Of a stretch of 64,000 bases of DNA, positions 6,523 through 60,653 are shown one piece after another. How positions within the stretch are numbered: the first letter of the stretch is position 1; the number at the start of each line of letters is the position of its first letter. This DNA is from Thermococcus sp. 2319x1 (GTDB lineage: Archaea > Methanobacteriota_B > Thermococci > Thermococcales > Thermococcaceae). The notes beneath the pieces were generated by a model. The model ran no database searches, was not told the origin of the DNA, and saw nothing but the letters and a program-made list of their open reading frames with translations. The position numbers and the translations under genes were made by a program. The stretch is from the NCBI RefSeq assembly GCF_001484685.1, contig NZ_CP012200.1, positions 1,234,321 through 1,298,320 of the forward strand. Direction: 5' to 3'.

Positions 6523-7740
6523 ATGATAATCCGAGGAGACGAGCCCGAGCAGATAGGGCTCTTAAAAAGGCTTTACCCCAAGGGAAACTACTTCATGCAG
6601 GGCGATGAGGCTATAGCTTATGGAGCTCTTTTTGCCGGGTGCAGGTTTTACGCCGGCTATCCAATAACCCCCGCAAGTGAAATTGCCGAAACAATGGCAA
6701 GGGAGCTTCCGAAGCTTAAGGGCTACTACATCCAGATGGAGGATGAGATAGGGAGCATTGCCGCTGTAATAGGTGCTTCTTGGACGGGACTTAAGAGCAT
6801 GACCGCAACTTCCGGCCCGGGTTTTAGCTTGATGATGGAGAACCTTGGCTATGCCATAATGACAGAGACCCCCTTGGTTTTAGTTGACGTTCAAAGGAGC
6901 GGCCCTTCGACAGGTCAGGCAACAAAAGGCGCCCAGGGAGATTTCTTCCAGGCAAGGTGGGGAACTCATGGGGATCATCCAATAATAGCCATTTCTCCAA
7001 CGAGTGTGGAGGACAGCTTCTGGGAGACAATAAGGGCGTTTAACTTGAGTGAAAAATTCAGAATACCAGTGATTCTTCTTGCTGATGGGATAATAGGACA
7101 CACAAGAGAGCAGATAAGAATTCCTGATCCGGAGGAAGTTGAAATAGTCTATAGAAAGCTTCCCGCCAATGAAGAGGAAGCTAAATATCCATTTGGAGAC
7201 GTTCATGGCGACTTAATTCCTCCGATGCCCCTCTTTGGTAACGGCTACTTTACTCACGTTACGGGCTCTACGCACAAGGAAAATGGCTTGAGAGATGTCT
7301 ACACTCCAGAGGTTCACGATCGCTTGGTGAGGAGGCTTCACAAGAAGATAGAAGTTCACGAGAAGGAGATCCAAAAATGGGAAGAATACCACACCGACGA
7401 TGCAGAGATTCTGCTCGTGAGCTGGGGCGTAAGCGCGAGGCCATCGCTTGGAGCGGTAATAGAGGCAAGAAAGAAGGGGATAAAGGCTGGACTCATTGTC
7501 CCTAAGACCGTTCATCCGTTCCCCGGGAAGAGAATTAAGGAGCTCTCTAAGGAAGCTCACACGATTCTTGTGCCCGAGATGAACCTTGGGCAGATGATAC
7601 TCGAGGTGCAGCGCTTTGTAAGGGAGGAAGTTCCGGTTATTGGCGTGAACAAGATAGGTGGCGTTCCCTTAACGGTAGAGGAGATTTTAAAAGAAATAGA
7701 AAGCTCAGCCGAGCGTCCTCGTCACCGTTCGGCGGATTAG
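6523..7740 (+). CDS. korA: 2-oxoacid (probably 2-oxoglutarate):ferredoxin oxidoreductase alpha subunit
   Basis: Catalytic alpha subunit of the CoA-dependent oxidoreductase that turns 2-oxoglutarate into succinyl-CoA. QGDEAIAYGALFAGCRFYAGYPITPASEI is the typical start of the pyrimidine-binding domain (shown in part: GCRFYAGYPITPASEI), and MEDEIGSIAAVIGASW follows. The 405-residue product ends with an odd tail, SSAERPRHRSAD, that the paralogue at 9156 lacks. The DNA of this tail is antisense to a box C/D RNA gene. Two internal blocks are identical in DNA to the paralogue (see findings). The ATG at 6523 follows GGTGATAAG. Confidence 0.9.
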   Translation: MIIRGDEPEQIGLLKRLYPKGNYFMQGDEAIAYGALFAGCRFYAGYPITPASEIAETMARELPKLKGYYIQMEDEIGSIAAVIGASWTGLKSMTATSGPGFSLMMENLGYAIMTETPLVLVDVQRSGPSTGQATKGAQGDFFQARWGTHGDHPIIAISPTSVEDSFWETIRAFNLSEKFRIPVILLADGIIGHTREQIRIPDPEEVEIVYRKLPANEEEAKYPFGDVHGDLIPPMPLFGNGYFTHVTGSTHKENGLRDVYTPEVHDRLVRRLHKKIEVHEKEIQKWEEYHTDDAEILLVSWGVSARPSLGAVIEARKKGIKAGLIVPKTVHPFPGKRIKELSKEAHTILVPEMNLGQMILEVQRFVREEVPVIGVNKIGGVPLTVEEILKEIESSAERPRHRSAD

Positions 7741-7755
7741 ATATTCATCATCGCT
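7702..7755 (-). ncRNA. Box C/D guide RNA antisense to the end of korA
   Basis: Read on the minus strand: terminal stem AGC, box C GATGATGA, a guide ending TATCTAATCCG, D' box CCGA, spacer ACG, C' box GTGACGA, guide GGACGCTCGG, D box CTGA and closing GCT, which pairs with AGC. A minus-strand TATA box TTTAAATA at 7775-7782 is centred about 26 bp upstream of the stem. The D' guide is complementary over 11 bases to CGGATTAGATA, the universally conserved 16S rRNA segment around E. coli position 790. It overlaps the last codons of korA. Confidence 0.75.
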
Positions 7756-7793
7756 GAATAAAGTTGGTGTTTGGATATTTAAAGGTGATGCGC

Positions 7794-8657
7794 ATGGCAA
7801 AACAAATTTACACAAAGTATGAAATGGTCAAATATCTTAGGAAGGAAGCCCTCCCAACCGCACTTTGTCCCGGGTGTGGTGGGGGGACTGTGTTGAATGC
7901 TTTTGCAAACGCCATAGATCAGCTAAAAATCGACCCGCGTGACTTAGTTGTCGTGAGTGGGATAGGGTGCTCGGCTTGGATAGCCTCACCGTACTTTCTT
8001 GCTGACACCCTGCACACCACACATGGAAGAGCTGTAGCATTTGCAACTGGCGTTAAAGTTGGTTTGCCCGATAAGAAAGTTGTTGTCATAAGCGGTGATG
8101 GAGACCTGGCCGGAATTGGGGGAAATCATCTTATCCATGCAGCAAGGAGGAACATCGACATAACTGTAATCGTTGTGAACAACTTCATATATGGGATGAC
8201 AGGTGGGCAAGTAGCACCAACAACTCCCTTTGGGGCAATTACCACCACGACGCCTTATAGGAACATTGAGCATCCACTAAAAATAGCCGAAACCGTAGCC
8301 TCCGCTGGGGCCTCTTATGTGGCAAGGTGGACCACTTTTCACGTTTACCAGCTGATAGAGAGCATAAAGAAGGCATTGACCGTTAAGGGATTCTCCCTTG
8401 TAGAGGCAGTTTCTCAATGTCCCGTGCAGTTCGGAAGGAGAAACAGAATGAAGACCCCAGCCGAGATGCTTCGCTGGTTCTCAAAGAATTCCATCCCAAT
8501 AACCAAGGCCAAGAACATGTCTCCGGAAGAGCTTGAGGGGAAAATTGTCATTGGAGAGTTTGTAAGCAGAGAAAAGCCCGAGTTTACGGAAGAACTTAAC
8601 AAGCTTATTGATGAGGTTGCCCAATATTACCGGCTGGGTGATGAAGATGCAGATTAG
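7794..8657 (+). CDS. korB: 2-oxoacid:ferredoxin oxidoreductase beta subunit
   Basis: Thiamine diphosphate-binding subunit. LCPGCGGGT near residue 25 supplies the conserved CxxC, and GDGDLAGIGGNHLIHAARRN with the following VVNNFIYGMTGGQ is the ThDP motif of this family. The ATG at 7794 is chosen because GGTGATG lies at 7783; the earlier GTG at 7764 has no ribosome site. The spacer to korA contains the TATA box of the antisense C/D RNA. The gene overlaps the start of korC. Confidence 0.9.
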   Translation: MAKQIYTKYEMVKYLRKEALPTALCPGCGGGTVLNAFANAIDQLKIDPRDLVVVSGIGCSAWIASPYFLADTLHTTHGRAVAFATGVKVGLPDKKVVVISGDGDLAGIGGNHLIHAARRNIDITVIVVNNFIYGMTGGQVAPTTPFGAITTTTPYRNIEHPLKIAETVASAGASYVARWTTFHVYQLIESIKKALTVKGFSLVEAVSQCPVQFGRRNRMKTPAEMLRWFSKNSIPITKAKNMSPEELEGKIVIGEFVSREKPEFTEELNKLIDEVAQYYRLGDEDAD

Positions 8658-9159
8658 GTTAGCGGGTATTGGAGGACAGGGGGTTGTTCTTGCAGGCATA
8701 ATCCTGGGAGAGGCGGCCGCCATAGAGGGGCTTAACGTGATCCAAACCCAGGATTATGGTTCCCAAAGCAGAGGGGGACATTCTATAGCTGACTTAATAA
8801 TCTCAAAGGAGCCGATTTACGATTTAATGGTCACAAAAGCCGATATCCTCGTTGCACTTGCCCAGCTTGGCTATAATTCTACAAAGAACTCTCTCCGGGA
8901 GGATGGGCTTTTGATAATTGACACCGACCTTGTAAAGCCCGATAGGGAGTATATAGGCGCACCATTCACAAGACTTGCCGAGGAAAAAACGGGCTTGGCT
9001 TTAACCGTCAACATGGTTGCGCTTGGATATCTGGTTGCAAAAACAAACATTGTGAGGAAAGAGAGTGTTGAAAGGGCCATAAGGAGAAGGGTTCCCAAGG
9101 GAACAGAGGAGATAAATCTAAAGGCTTTTAGGATAGGTTACGAGGAGGGGTTGAGATGA
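8647..9159 (+). CDS. korC: 2-oxoacid:ferredoxin oxidoreductase gamma subunit
   Basis: Gamma subunit, about 170 residues, with the family start MQIRLAGIGGQGVVLAGIIL and the block QDYGSQSRGGHSIADLIIS. The ATG at 8647 follows GGGTGATG with a 5-6 base gap and overlaps the end of korB by 11 bases; an upstream ATG at 8641 is an alternative. It overlaps the next gene start (9156) by 4 bases, which marks translational coupling between the first and second oxidoreductase sets. Confidence 0.88.
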   Translation: MQIRLAGIGGQGVVLAGIILGEAAAIEGLNVIQTQDYGSQSRGGHSIADLIISKEPIYDLMVTKADILVALAQLGYNSTKNSLREDGLLIIDTDLVKPDREYIGAPFTRLAEEKTGLALTVNMVALGYLVAKTNIVRKESVERAIRRRVPKGTEEINLKAFRIGYEEGLR

Positions 9160-10313
9160 GATATCCGTTTCCCGTTGGAAGTGCTGATTTTATCCAAGGG
9201 GATGAAGCCATAGCAAGGGCTGCCATTTTAGCCGGGTGTAGGTTTTACGCCGGTTATCCAATAACTCCCGCAAGCGAAATTTTTGAGGCAATGTCCCTTT
9301 ACATGCCCCTTGTTGATGGAGTGAGCATTCAGATGGAGGATGAGATAGGGAGCATTGCCGCTGTAATAGGTGCTTCTTGGGCTGGGGCCAAGGCCATGAC
9401 CGCAACTTCCGGCCCGGGTTTTAGCTTGATGATGGAGAACCTTGGCTATGCCATAATGACAGAGACCCCCTTGGTTTTAGTTGACGTTCAAAGGAGCGGC
9501 CCTTCGACAGGTCAGCCCACTTTGGCAGCTCAAGGCGATTTAATGCAGGCTATATGGGGGACTCACGGGGATCACAGCTTGATAGTTCTAACACCGGCAA
9601 CGGTTCAAGAGGCCTTTGACATGACAATAAGAGCCTTTAATCTTGCGGAGAAATATAGAACTCCCGTTATATTGCTGACGGATGCTGAAGTTGGACACAT
9701 GAGGGAGAGAGTTTATGCTCCACATCCGGACGAACTTGAACTCATTTACAGAAAGCTTCCCGCCAATGAAGAGGAAGCTAAATATCCATTTGGAGACGTT
9801 CATGGCGACTTAGTTCCTCCAATGCCTATCTTTGGGAAAGGATATCGCACTTATGTCACCGGACTGACGCACGACGAAAGGGGAGGACCCAAAACAGTGG
9901 AGGCAGAGGTTCATGAAAAGCTCATAAAGCGCATTGTTGCCAAGATAGAGAACAACAAGAAGGACATCTTTGATTATGAAGCCTATGAACTGGACGATGC
10001 CGATATAGTGCTGGTGAGCTTTGGGATTGTCGCGAGATCGGCTATGAGAGCCGTCAAGGAACTTCGCAAAGAAGGAATAAGAGCCGGATTGCTCAAACTT
10101 AATGTAATCTGGCCTTTTGATTTCGAGCTGATAGAGAAAATAGCCGAAAAAGCGGAGAAGATGTACGTTGCGGAGATGAACCTTGGCCAGCTCTATCACC
10201 TGGTTAAGGAGGGAGCCAACGGAAAGGCCGATGTGGAGCTCATAAGCAAGATAGGTGGAGAAGTCCATACCCCCGGGGAGATAGTGGAGAGAATTAAGAA
10301 GGATTTGAGGTGA
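9156..10313 (+). CDS. 2-oxoacid:ferredoxin oxidoreductase alpha subunit, second copy
   Basis: Paralogue of korA (385 residues), with the same pyrimidine-domain start GCRFYAGYPITPASEI. Substrate is uncertain; the equivalent P. furiosus set (PF1771-1773, from memory) is an uncharacterised 2-oxoacid oxidoreductase sometimes called XOR4. Two stretches, 9395-9515 and 9750-9812, are base-for-base identical to korA while surrounding DNA has diverged, which indicates gene conversion. It lacks the arginine-rich tail of korA. The ATG overlaps korC by ATGA. Confidence 0.87.
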   Translation: MRYPFPVGSADFIQGDEAIARAAILAGCRFYAGYPITPASEIFEAMSLYMPLVDGVSIQMEDEIGSIAAVIGASWAGAKAMTATSGPGFSLMMENLGYAIMTETPLVLVDVQRSGPSTGQPTLAAQGDLMQAIWGTHGDHSLIVLTPATVQEAFDMTIRAFNLAEKYRTPVILLTDAEVGHMRERVYAPHPDELELIYRKLPANEEEAKYPFGDVHGDLVPPMPIFGKGYRTYVTGLTHDERGGPKTVEAEVHEKLIKRIVAKIENNKKDIFDYEAYELDDADIVLVSFGIVARSAMRAVKELRKEGIRAGLLKLNVIWPFDFELIEKIAEKAEKMYVAEMNLGQLYHLVKEGANGKADVELISKIGGEVHTPGEIVERIKKDLR

Positions 10314-34150: not shown

Positions 34151-34208
34151 CACCTCGGCCAAGTCCCTTCTCATCATCCCTCAGCGTGCTGACGTTTCCT
34201 CATCGGTG
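34151..34208 (-). ncRNA. Box C/D guide RNA overlapping the end of the PfkB gene
   Basis: Minus strand, in order: stem CACC, box C GATGA, guide ending GTCAGCACG, D' CTGA, spacer GG, C' GATGATGA, guide GAAGGGACTTGG, D CCGA, closing GGTG, which pairs with CACC. All four boxes and the four-base terminal stem are present. The RNA covers the last eight codons of the kinase gene (TDEETSAR) and the ribosome site of the Nudix gene on the same strand. It may therefore be processed from the kinase mRNA; no strong TATA is seen at the right distance. Targets not recognised. Confidence 0.6.
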
Positions 34209-58779: not shown

Positions 58780-60588
58780 ATGAAGGTGTTTGTTGCGGAT
58801 ACGAGCGTTATAGTTGATGGGAGGCTCACTCAGTACCTCAACAGGATTGACGAAAAGGTTAAGGTGATTATTCCCGAAGCGGTTGTTGCTGAGATTGAGC
58901 ATCAGGCGAATGAGGGCAAGGCTATAGGGCACACTGGGTTGGAGGAGTTAAAAAAACTTAGAAAACTTGCCGATGAAGATAAGATCCTTTTAGAATTCTA
59001 CGGTGAAAGGCCAGATCTATGGCAAATTAGAAGGGCAAAAGCTGGGGAAATTGACCACATGATAAGGGAAGTTGCCAGAGAGCTTAACGCAATCCTTATA
59101 ACCGGTGATCAGGTGCAGAGGGACATCGCCATAGCCAAAGGCATCGAGGTAATCTATCTCGAAAGCAGAAAAGAGGTTAAGCACAGACTTGAGGACTTTT
59201 TTGATGAGCATACAATGAGCGTTCACCTTAAAGCCGGCGTAAAGCCACTGGCAAAGAAAGGAAAACCCGGTCAATGGAGGCTTGTTCCCATAAGGGATGA
59301 GGAGCTTACGGATGAGGAGCTTGAGGAGATAGCGGATGACATAGTCGAGAGGGCTAAGAGAGATCCGGAGTCGTTTATAGAGCTTGATGAACCCGGGGCC
59401 ACTGTTGTTCAGCTGAGGAACTATCGTATAGTCATAGCAAAGCCCCCGTTTGCCGATAGAATAGAGATTACCGCTGTAAGACCGATAACCAAATTGAGCA
59501 TAGAGGACTACAACCTCCCGGAAAAACTCTTAGAGCGTTTAACCGACAAAGCCGAGGGAATACTTATAGCCGGTGCGCCCGGAGAAGGGAAGACAACTTT
59601 TGCACAGGCTTTAGCTGAGTACTATGCCTCCATGGGTAAGATAGTTAAGACAATGGAAAAACCCAGAGACCTTCAGGTTAGTGAAGAGATAACCCAGTAT
59701 ACGGCACTTGGGGGAAGAATGGAAAAAACCGGGGATGTGCTCTTACTGGTCAGGCCGGACTACACCATATTCGACGAGATGAGGAAGACGAGTGACTTCA
59801 AGATCTATGCTGATTTAAGGCTCGCTGGAGTTGGCATGATAGGCGTTGTCCACGCTACAAAGCCCATAGACGCTATCCAGAGATTTATTGGAAGGGTGGA
59901 GCTCGGAATGATTCCGCAAATAGTTGATACAGTGATATTCATAAAAGCTGGGAATGTTGATAAAGTGCTGACTCTGGAGTATAAGGTTAAGGTGCCGAGT
60001 GGAATGACAGAGGAGGATTTAGCGAGACCTGTTATAGAGGTCAGGGACTTCATGACGGATGAACTTGAATACGAGATTTATACCTATGGAGAGGAGATAA
60101 GCGTTGTTCCAGTAAAGAAAAAAGAGAAGCCACCGGCAATGAAACTCGCGGAGAAAAAGCTCAAACAGGAGATCAAGAAGTTCCTCCCCGACGTTTACAC
60201 CGAAGTTGAGCTTGCAAGTCCGCACAAGGCTATAATATACGCGGATGAATTTGATATCCCGACAATAATAGGGAAGAAGGGCAAGAGAATAAGCGAAATA
60301 GAGAAAAAGCTTGGCATAAGTATAGATGTGAGGAGCTTTGATGAAAAACTTGCAGAAATGCCCAAGGAAAAGATACCCGTTGAGGCAGAAGAAAAGAAAA
60401 AGCAAATAATCCTTAAAGTTTCACCCGATTTTGCTAAGAAACCCCTTAAGTTCTTTGCAGGCGAGCAGTACATATTCACCGCAACGCCTTCAAGAAAGGG
60501 GCTTGTTAAGGTTAACAAAAACACCCCGATAGGTAAGGAGCTCACGAGGGTGCTGGATGCAGGAATTGAGCTCTGGGCTTCTCTTTAA
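58780..60588 (+). CDS. PINc-PilT-like ATPase-KH protein
   Basis: Three-part protein of 602 residues. PIN nuclease domain at residues 1-145 (FVADTSVIVDGRLTQYL, AILITGDQVQRDIA with acidic metal residues). PilT/VirB11-like ATPase at about 240-440 (LIAGAPGEGKTTFAQALAEY; VRPDYTIFDEMRKTSD as the Walker B/Asp box; GMIGVVHATKPIDAI as the His box). KH-type RNA-binding domain at about 470-530 (IPTIIGKKGKRISEIEKKLG). The layout is known as the archaeal PINA family, an ATPase acting on nucleic acids including Holliday junctions. The ATG at 58780 follows GGTGAG. Confidence 0.88.
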   Translation: MKVFVADTSVIVDGRLTQYLNRIDEKVKVIIPEAVVAEIEHQANEGKAIGHTGLEELKKLRKLADEDKILLEFYGERPDLWQIRRAKAGEIDHMIREVARELNAILITGDQVQRDIAIAKGIEVIYLESRKEVKHRLEDFFDEHTMSVHLKAGVKPLAKKGKPGQWRLVPIRDEELTDEELEEIADDIVERAKRDPESFIELDEPGATVVQLRNYRIVIAKPPFADRIEITAVRPITKLSIEDYNLPEKLLERLTDKAEGILIAGAPGEGKTTFAQALAEYYASMGKIVKTMEKPRDLQVSEEITQYTALGGRMEKTGDVLLLVRPDYTIFDEMRKTSDFKIYADLRLAGVGMIGVVHATKPIDAIQRFIGRVELGMIPQIVDTVIFIKAGNVDKVLTLEYKVKVPSGMTEEDLARPVIEVRDFMTDELEYEIYTYGEEISVVPVKKKEKPPAMKLAEKKLKQEIKKFLPDVYTEVELASPHKAIIYADEFDIPTIIGKKGKRISEIEKKLGISIDVRSFDEKLAEMPKEKIPVEAEEKKKQIILKVSPDFAKKPLKFFAGEQYIFTATPSRKGLVKVNKNTPIGKELTRVLDAGIELWASL

Positions 60589-60597
60589 TCTCTTTTT

Positions 60598-60653
60598 GGC
60601 TCAGTTGCGAGGGTACTCATCATTACTCAGCTAGCGAAATTGTCCTCATCGCC
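60598..60653 (-). ncRNA. Box C/D guide RNA targeting conserved 23S rRNA
   Basis: Minus strand: stem GGC, box C GATGA (in GCGATGA, 60646-60652), guide ending ATTTCGCTAG, D' CTGA (60627-60630), spacer GTA, C' ATGATGA (60617-60623), guide GTACCCTCGCAA, D CTGA (60601-60604), closing GCC. The D' guide is complementary over 10 bases to TAGCGAAATT, part of the universally conserved 23S segment GGTAGCGAAATTCCTTG. A minus-strand TATA-like CTTAAAG at about 60675-60682 is centred 26 bp upstream. It fills the spacer between the PINc-ATPase and Maf genes. Confidence 0.8.

What the first reader, a model, noticed from the sequence alone, without database searches (positions are those of the whole stretch)
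7702..7755. Box C/D RNA gene hidden antisense at the end of korA, with a 16S rRNA guide
All boxes, a closing AGC/GCT stem and an antisense TATA box at the right distance are present. The D' guide is complementary over 11 bases to CGGATTAGATA, the invariant 790-region of 16S rRNA. The overlapped end of KorA is an odd arginine-rich tail missing in the paralogue, so the RNA gene has apparently written a protein C-terminus. The TATA box sits in the korA-korB spacer, placing opposite transcription inside a highly expressed operon.
Basis: partly seen in the sequence, partly recalled or inferred. Interest (0 to 1): 0.75.

Follow-up and report, generated by a model that had tools for sequence, protein, structure and literature searches.

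The report
Conserved C/D guide RNA antisense to korA
A 54-base guide RNA gene, of a common archaeal kind that tells the cell where to methylate its ribosomal RNA, lies backwards over the end of a metabolic gene and has been kept almost letter for letter for so long that it now dictates the last twelve amino acids of that protein.

Summary
At 7755-7702 (minus strand) lies a complete archaeal C/D box sRNA: C ATGATGA, 12-nt guide, D' CCGA, 3-nt spacer, C' GTGACGA, 10-nt guide, D CTGA, AGC/GCT stem. Many Rfam C/D models align to exactly these ends, below their gathering scores. The generic model snoPyro_CD finds it genome-wide at E 6.7e-4.

It is present in all 14 relatives (two genera) whose assemblies hold this korA end. 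It is absent from four other genera, where korA ends in ...REIRGVA and abuts korB.

In the overlapped korA codons, 1.5% of amino-acid-identical codons differ, against 53% just upstream, so selection acts on the RNA. The closing stem covaries.

The D' guide pairs 11/11 with 16S rRNA. The guide rule predicts 2'-O-methylation of U788 (E. coli numbering). The D guide has no convincing target.

Antisense C/D RNAs over 3' gene ends are documented in Thermococcus kodakarensis (16 of 17 antisense snoRNAs there), so the arrangement is known. This is a new, clade-restricted family of a known kind, inserted between korA and korB, and it wrote KorA's tail. Expression and methylation were not testable here.

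The parts
7702..7755 (-). C/D box sRNA gene (54 nt)
   Evidence: Rfam sub-threshold C/D hits with the same ends; genome-wide snoPyro_CD E 6.7e-4; conserved in 14 of 14 relatives with this korA end
7753..7755 (-). 5' arm of closing stem (AGC)
   Evidence: pairs with 7702-7704; A-U changes to G-C in L014, C-G to U-G in L006, and a fourth G-C pair appears in L013 and L014
7745..7751 (-). box C, ATGATGA
   Evidence: sequence; TGATGA invariant in 14 genomes although outside the korA reading frame
7733..7744 (-). D' guide, ATATCTAATCCG; its last 11 bases pair with 16S rRNA CGGATTAGATA (E. coli 784-794)
   Evidence: the fifth base upstream of D' pairs with U788
7729..7732 (-). box D', CCGA
   Evidence: sequence; CCGA and CTGA alternate at D' in another C/D family of relatives (L205 and L207)
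7719..7725 (-). box C', GTGACGA
   Evidence: sequence; TGACGA invariant, first base G or A
7709..7718 (-). D guide, GGACGCTCGG (10 nt), no convincing target
   Evidence: best matches 7-9 bp; this genome alone has G where all other carriers have A
7705..7708 (-). box D, CTGA
   Evidence: sequence; invariant
7702..7704 (-). 3' arm of closing stem (GCT)
7776..7783 (-). TATA box TTTAAATA, candidate promoter of the sRNA
   Evidence: 20-22 nt upstream of the RNA in 13 of 14 genomes, degenerate in L014
6523..7740 (+). korA, 2-oxoacid:ferredoxin oxidoreductase alpha subunit; last 12 codons and stop TAG (7738-7740) lie within the sRNA complement
   Evidence: NCBIfam NF006412 591.9 bits; tail only in sRNA-bearing genomes
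7794..8657 (+). korB, beta subunit; most likely start ATG 7794
   Evidence: NCBIfam PRK09628 and PorB_KorB matches, below their curated cut-offs; N-terminus matches relatives

Best explanation
It is a genuine archaeal C/D box methylation-guide RNA transcribed antisense to the 3' end of korA, probably from its own TATA box in the korA-korB spacer. Assembled with L7Ae, Nop5 and fibrillarin, its D' guide pairs with 16S rRNA CGGATTAGATA (E. coli 784-794, the 790 loop of helix 24), and the N+5 rule places the 2'-O-methyl on U788. The D guide is probably orphan. The gene was inserted between korA and korB in an ancestor of the lineages that carry it. Its complement supplied a new KorA C-terminus (SSAERSRHRSAD plus the stop codon) that has since been held fixed by selection on the RNA. 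Shown: boxes, conservation, RNA-level constraint, complementarity, tail replacement. Inferred: transcription, RNP assembly, methylation, mode of insertion.
For: Box architecture and spacing. Rfam C/D families align end to end; the generic family finds it genome-wide at E 6.7e-4. 14 of 14 relatives with this korA end keep it, about 98% mean column identity, while the adjacent spacer is 33-62% identical, compared without gaps. The two non-carriers of these genera lack this korA 3' end in their assemblies. Amino-acid-identical codons that differ: 1.5% in the tail versus 53% upstream against L013, 1.7% versus 61% against L014. Box C lies outside the reading frame and is conserved. Closing stem changes keep pairing, though with few distinct rows. 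11-bp perfect rRNA duplex, above most duplexes of the other C/D RNA candidates of this genome taken. The target is unchanged in the five relatives' 16S rRNA inspected. TATA kept in 13 of 14. Outgroups have KorA ...REIRGVA* directly abutting korB, with about 55 nt less between korA stop and korB.
Against: No expression data. Below the gathering score of every Rfam family. The D' box departs from consensus (CCGA). The D guide is 10 nt and lacks a target. The TATA box is degenerate in L014. The covariation control is weak (68 of 500 shuffles as high). The KorA tree does not group the carriers as one clade, though it does not exclude it.
Confidence: 0.87

Rival explanations
1. The conserved stretch is a protein-level feature: KorA's arginine-rich tail has a function and the boxes are a by-product of conserved codons.
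For: The reading frame and stop are kept in all 14 carriers, and only a few residues differ (P/S in this genome; R/S in L014).
Against: Synonymous changes are almost absent in the tail (1.5%) and normal upstream (53%). The conservation continues 15 nt beyond the stop codon into box C and the stem arm. The tail is absent from the paralogue and from four related genera.
Confidence: 0.03
2. A true C/D RNA, but its main role is as antisense regulator of korAB mRNA (blocking or methylating the mRNA at its stop codon) rather than guiding rRNA methylation.
For: It is perfectly complementary to korA mRNA by construction; both guides find a perfect target there; the D guide has no other convincing target.
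Against: The D' guide is an 11-bp perfect match to 16S rRNA, about 1 in 300 by shuffling. C/D RNAs lie antisense over the 3' ends of 16 genes in T. kodakarensis (PMC4247193), suggesting position is incidental. In the outgroups korA and korB lack the RNA altogether.
Confidence: 0.05
3. A decayed or silent C/D RNA gene that is conserved only because it is embedded in korA.
For: Non-consensus D' and an orphan D guide; no expression evidence.
Against: All boxes, the D' guide and the stem are conserved between two genera with synonymous sites frozen. Decay would free synonymous sites and box C.
Confidence: 0.03
4. A chance resemblance of korA antisense sequence to a C/D RNA.
For: Only the scarcity of any single decisive score: every Rfam family is below gathering.
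Against: together.
Confidence: 0.01

Closest known systems
Pyrococcus/Thermococcus C/D box sRNAs (Rfam snoPyro_CD RF00095, sR1 RF01152, sR9, sR14, sR39)
   Same: Length, box order, spacing, closing stem; best model matches.
   Different: Both guides differ; below gathering scores (29.3 against 45 for sR1; 28.1 against 45 for snoPyro_CD). No homologue with this guide found in four other genera of the family.
Antisense snoRNAs at 3' gene ends in Thermococcus kodakarensis (PMC4247193)
   Same: Guide RNA transcribed antisense over the 3' end of a coding gene; 16 of 17 antisense snoRNAs there are so placed.
   Different: Different gene and guide; here comparison with outgroups also shows that the RNA complement rewrote the protein's end.
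C/D sRNA genes overlapping 3' ends of ORFs in six archaea (Tripp et al. 2017, as reviewed in PMC7994747)
   Same: The stop codon of the overlapped gene lies inside the sRNA; about 20% have a TATA-like motif upstream.
   Different: The review describes overlap with the upstream gene's 3' end, with the stop often in box C, as I read it in sense; here the overlap is antisense and the stop comes from the complement of the D' guide.

Membership tests
Archaeal C/D box sRNA | Box C (RUGAUGA) and box D (CUGA) near the ends | tested here: met
   ATGATGA and CTGA, invariant cores
Archaeal C/D box sRNA | Internal D' and C' boxes with short spacer | tested here: met
   CCGA-ACG-GTGACGA; variant D' also seen in other C/D RNAs of the family Thermococcaceae
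Archaeal C/D box sRNA | Short closing stem next to C and D | tested here: met
   AGC/GCT, with A-U to G-C change in L014 and extra pairs in L013 and L014; control weak with 7 distinct rows
Archaeal C/D box sRNA | Guide complementary to rRNA or tRNA next to D or D' | tested here: met
   D' guide 11/11 with 16S; D guide not
Archaeal C/D box sRNA | Expressed small RNA bound by L7Ae, Nop5, fibrillarin | not testable with these tools
   no RNA-seq or binding data available
Archaeal C/D box sRNA | 2'-O-methyl on the predicted target nucleotide | not testable with these tools
   would need RiboMeth-seq or mass spectrometry
Rfam snoPyro_CD (RF00095) | Score at or above gathering (45 bits) | tested here: not met
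   28.1 bits
Rfam sR1 (RF01152) | Score at or above gathering (45 bits) | tested here: not met
   29.3 bits; guides differ

The most novel reading that the evidence does not exclude
The same RNP acts twice: on 16S rRNA U788 and on korA mRNA, whose stop region is by construction an exact copy of the 16S target. It could place a 2'-O-methyl on the U just before the korA stop codon, or be sponged by korAB mRNA, coupling 2-oxoacid oxidation to ribosome modification.
Probability: 0.05. Interest if true: 0.7.

Novelty: new member of a known kind. Interest (0 to 1): 0.36.

Why it matters
It adds a clade-specific methylation guide for the 790 loop, a region that general knowledge places at the ribosomal P site and subunit interface, and makes a simple prediction: U788 is 2'-O-methylated in carriers and not in Pyrococcus or Thermococcus proper (unless another guide does it there). 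It is also a clean case of an RNA gene insertion creating a protein C-terminus, with the synonymous sites frozen by the RNA.

Tried and rejected
1) D guide targets: 16S, 23S, 5S and all 46 tRNA candidates of this genome searched. Best 7-9 bp; the 9-bp 23S match (with one G-U pair) exists only for this genome's G variant. A 7-bp 16S match (CCGAGCG) is expected by chance about 0.3 times by a simple count. Judged orphan.

2) A homologue elsewhere in other genera: a pattern search for the guide between boxes and covariance model R1 found only other C/D RNAs sharing the boxes but not the guides; one pattern hit in G072 lacks C' and D boxes (L116).

3) Whether the insertion happened once: KorA protein trees are unresolved at the relevant forks; two changes on the best tree, one not excluded. 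Shared position, frame and sequence favour one insertion.

5) A first alignment of loci in mixed orientation was misleading and was redone.

Full report
Observation. The minus strand at 7755-7702 reads AGC G ATGATGA ATATCTAATCCG CCGA ACG GTGACGA GGACGCTCGG CTGA GCT: closing stem, C, guide, D', spacer, C', guide, D, closing stem. It covers the last 12 codons and the stop of korA and 15 nt beyond. A C/D descriptor with two box pairs matches only this place in the 64-kb window and none in 60 dinucleotide shuffles; because I wrote it knowing this candidate, and it misses the window's sR34 and sR39, it is only supporting evidence. Rfam models were made independently: at least ten Pyrococcus C/D families align end to end with the same borders (sR1 29.3 bits, E 6e-6 for 251 bases), all below their gathering scores. 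The generic family snoPyro_CD scores it 28.1 bits, E 6.7e-4 for the whole genome, in the middle of a list of about 28 clear C/D RNAs and well apart from the noise.

Conservation. A DNA search of 94 genomes of the family finds the region in 12 of 13 genomes of the window's genus and 2 of 3 of a second genus. All 14 keep the RNA (model R1 81.8-91 bits; this model was built from these sequences). The two exceptions are not shown to be losses: in G080 this korA copy breaks off at residue 86, and in G003 (78% complete) this korA copy was not found. Four MAG contigs with the same locus are titled Thermococcus, Thermococci or Thermococcales (L031, L032, L033, L051).

RNA constraint, not protein constraint. 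Among codons coding the same amino acid, 2 of 131 differ in the tail against 231 of 433 in the 50 codons upstream (first genus against L013); 2 of 119 against 236 of 385 for L014. The 15 nt between the korA stop and the RNA's 5' end, outside the frame, are 93% identical (73% in L014), while the next 20 nt of spacer are 37% and 33%, compared without gaps. The stem's second pair changes from A-U to G-C in L014, a C-G becomes U-G in L006, and L013 and L014 gain a fourth G-C pair; with only seven distinct rows this alone would be weak.

Target. The 11 bases next to D' pair perfectly with CGGATTAGATA at bases 734-744 of this genome's 16S rRNA, which is E. coli 784-794 by the well-known 787-806 primer site ATTAGATACCC (from my own knowledge). 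The rule that the base paired to the fifth guide position upstream of the box is methylated gives U788. One of 300 shuffles of this guide reached the same score. Parsed the same way, other C/D RNA candidates of the same genome mostly give 8-12 bp. The target sequence is the same in all five relatives' 16S rRNA that I inspected, including non-carriers, so presence of the guide, not of the target, separates the lineages. In the P. abyssi 30S structure, ribose methylations are reported at Am373, Cm1376 and one ac4Cm250, none in this loop (PMC7005279), which agrees with the absence of the guide from Pyrococcus, although that list was not a dedicated survey. The D guide has no match beyond 7-9 bp in rRNA or tRNA; it is 10 nt long where most in this genome are 12. 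Orphan guides are common (28% in Pyrobaculum) and have been attributed in part to overlap with genes (PMC7994747).

How it came to be there. In the other four genera of the family KorA ends ...EEILREIRGVA (or ..RGV) and korB starts at the stop codon or within a few bases; the distance from korA stop to the CPGC motif of korB is 58-73 nt. In carriers KorA ends ...EEILKEIESSAERSRHRSAD and the distance is 125-127 nt. So the RNA and its spacer lie between the old end of korA and korB; the old last residues were replaced by the complement of the RNA, which also supplies the new stop TAG, inside the complement of the D' guide. The second alpha-subunit gene of the same cluster (9156-10313) has no such tail. 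KorA trees do not resolve whether the two carrier genera are sisters. The identical position and frame argue for one insertion, but loss from other lineages or transfer cannot be excluded.

Promoter. TTTAAATA lies 20-22 nt upstream of the RNA in 13 of 14 genomes although the sequence between diverges; it is degenerate in L014. It is next to the korB ribosome-binding site, so part of its conservation could be due to that. In the six archaea reviewed in PMC7994747 only about 20% of C/D genes have a TATA-like motif, so transcription from elsewhere is an alternative.

What is known. In T. kodakarensis 17 verified snoRNAs are antisense transcripts and 16 of these cover the 3' end of the sense gene (PMC4247193). 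The window itself holds a sense example: sR34 (34207-34153, minus) overlaps the last codons of a sugar-kinase-like gene. What is new is this family, its restriction to two genera in the genomes searched, its predicted U788 target, and the clear reconstruction of a protein end written by an RNA gene.

Verdict. The RNA gene is real with high confidence; its rRNA target is likely; its expression and the methylation are unproven. A new member of a known kind, of modest interest.

Noticed in passing
window 34153-34207 (-): Rfam sR34 C/D RNA (47.9 bits) overlaps in sense the 3' end of a PfkB-like sugar kinase ORF (35035-34181, minus; named by eye): the kinase's last codons are the RNA's 5' part.
   Followed up: partly
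window 60599-60653 (-): Rfam sR39 C/D RNA (76.5 bits) lies antisense, just downstream of an ATPase-like ORF ending at 60588, with an AT-rich stretch (AAAATATAAAAATTT) just upstream of it.
   Followed up: no
window 7717: This genome alone among 14 carriers has G instead of A in the D guide (KorA Pro instead of Ser); it would create a 9-bp 23S match at 1315-1323 that the other carriers' guide lacks.
   Followed up: partly
G000 contig 1, 68846-68901 (-) and 68936-68991 (+): Two C/D RNAs lie back to back, divergently, 34 nt apart, in the window's own genome, outside the window.
   Followed up: no
L269 and L274 (G002): This second-genus carrier genome has two 16S rRNA gene copies far apart on opposite strands; the other genomes searched here had one or, in G001, none found.
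   Followed up: no
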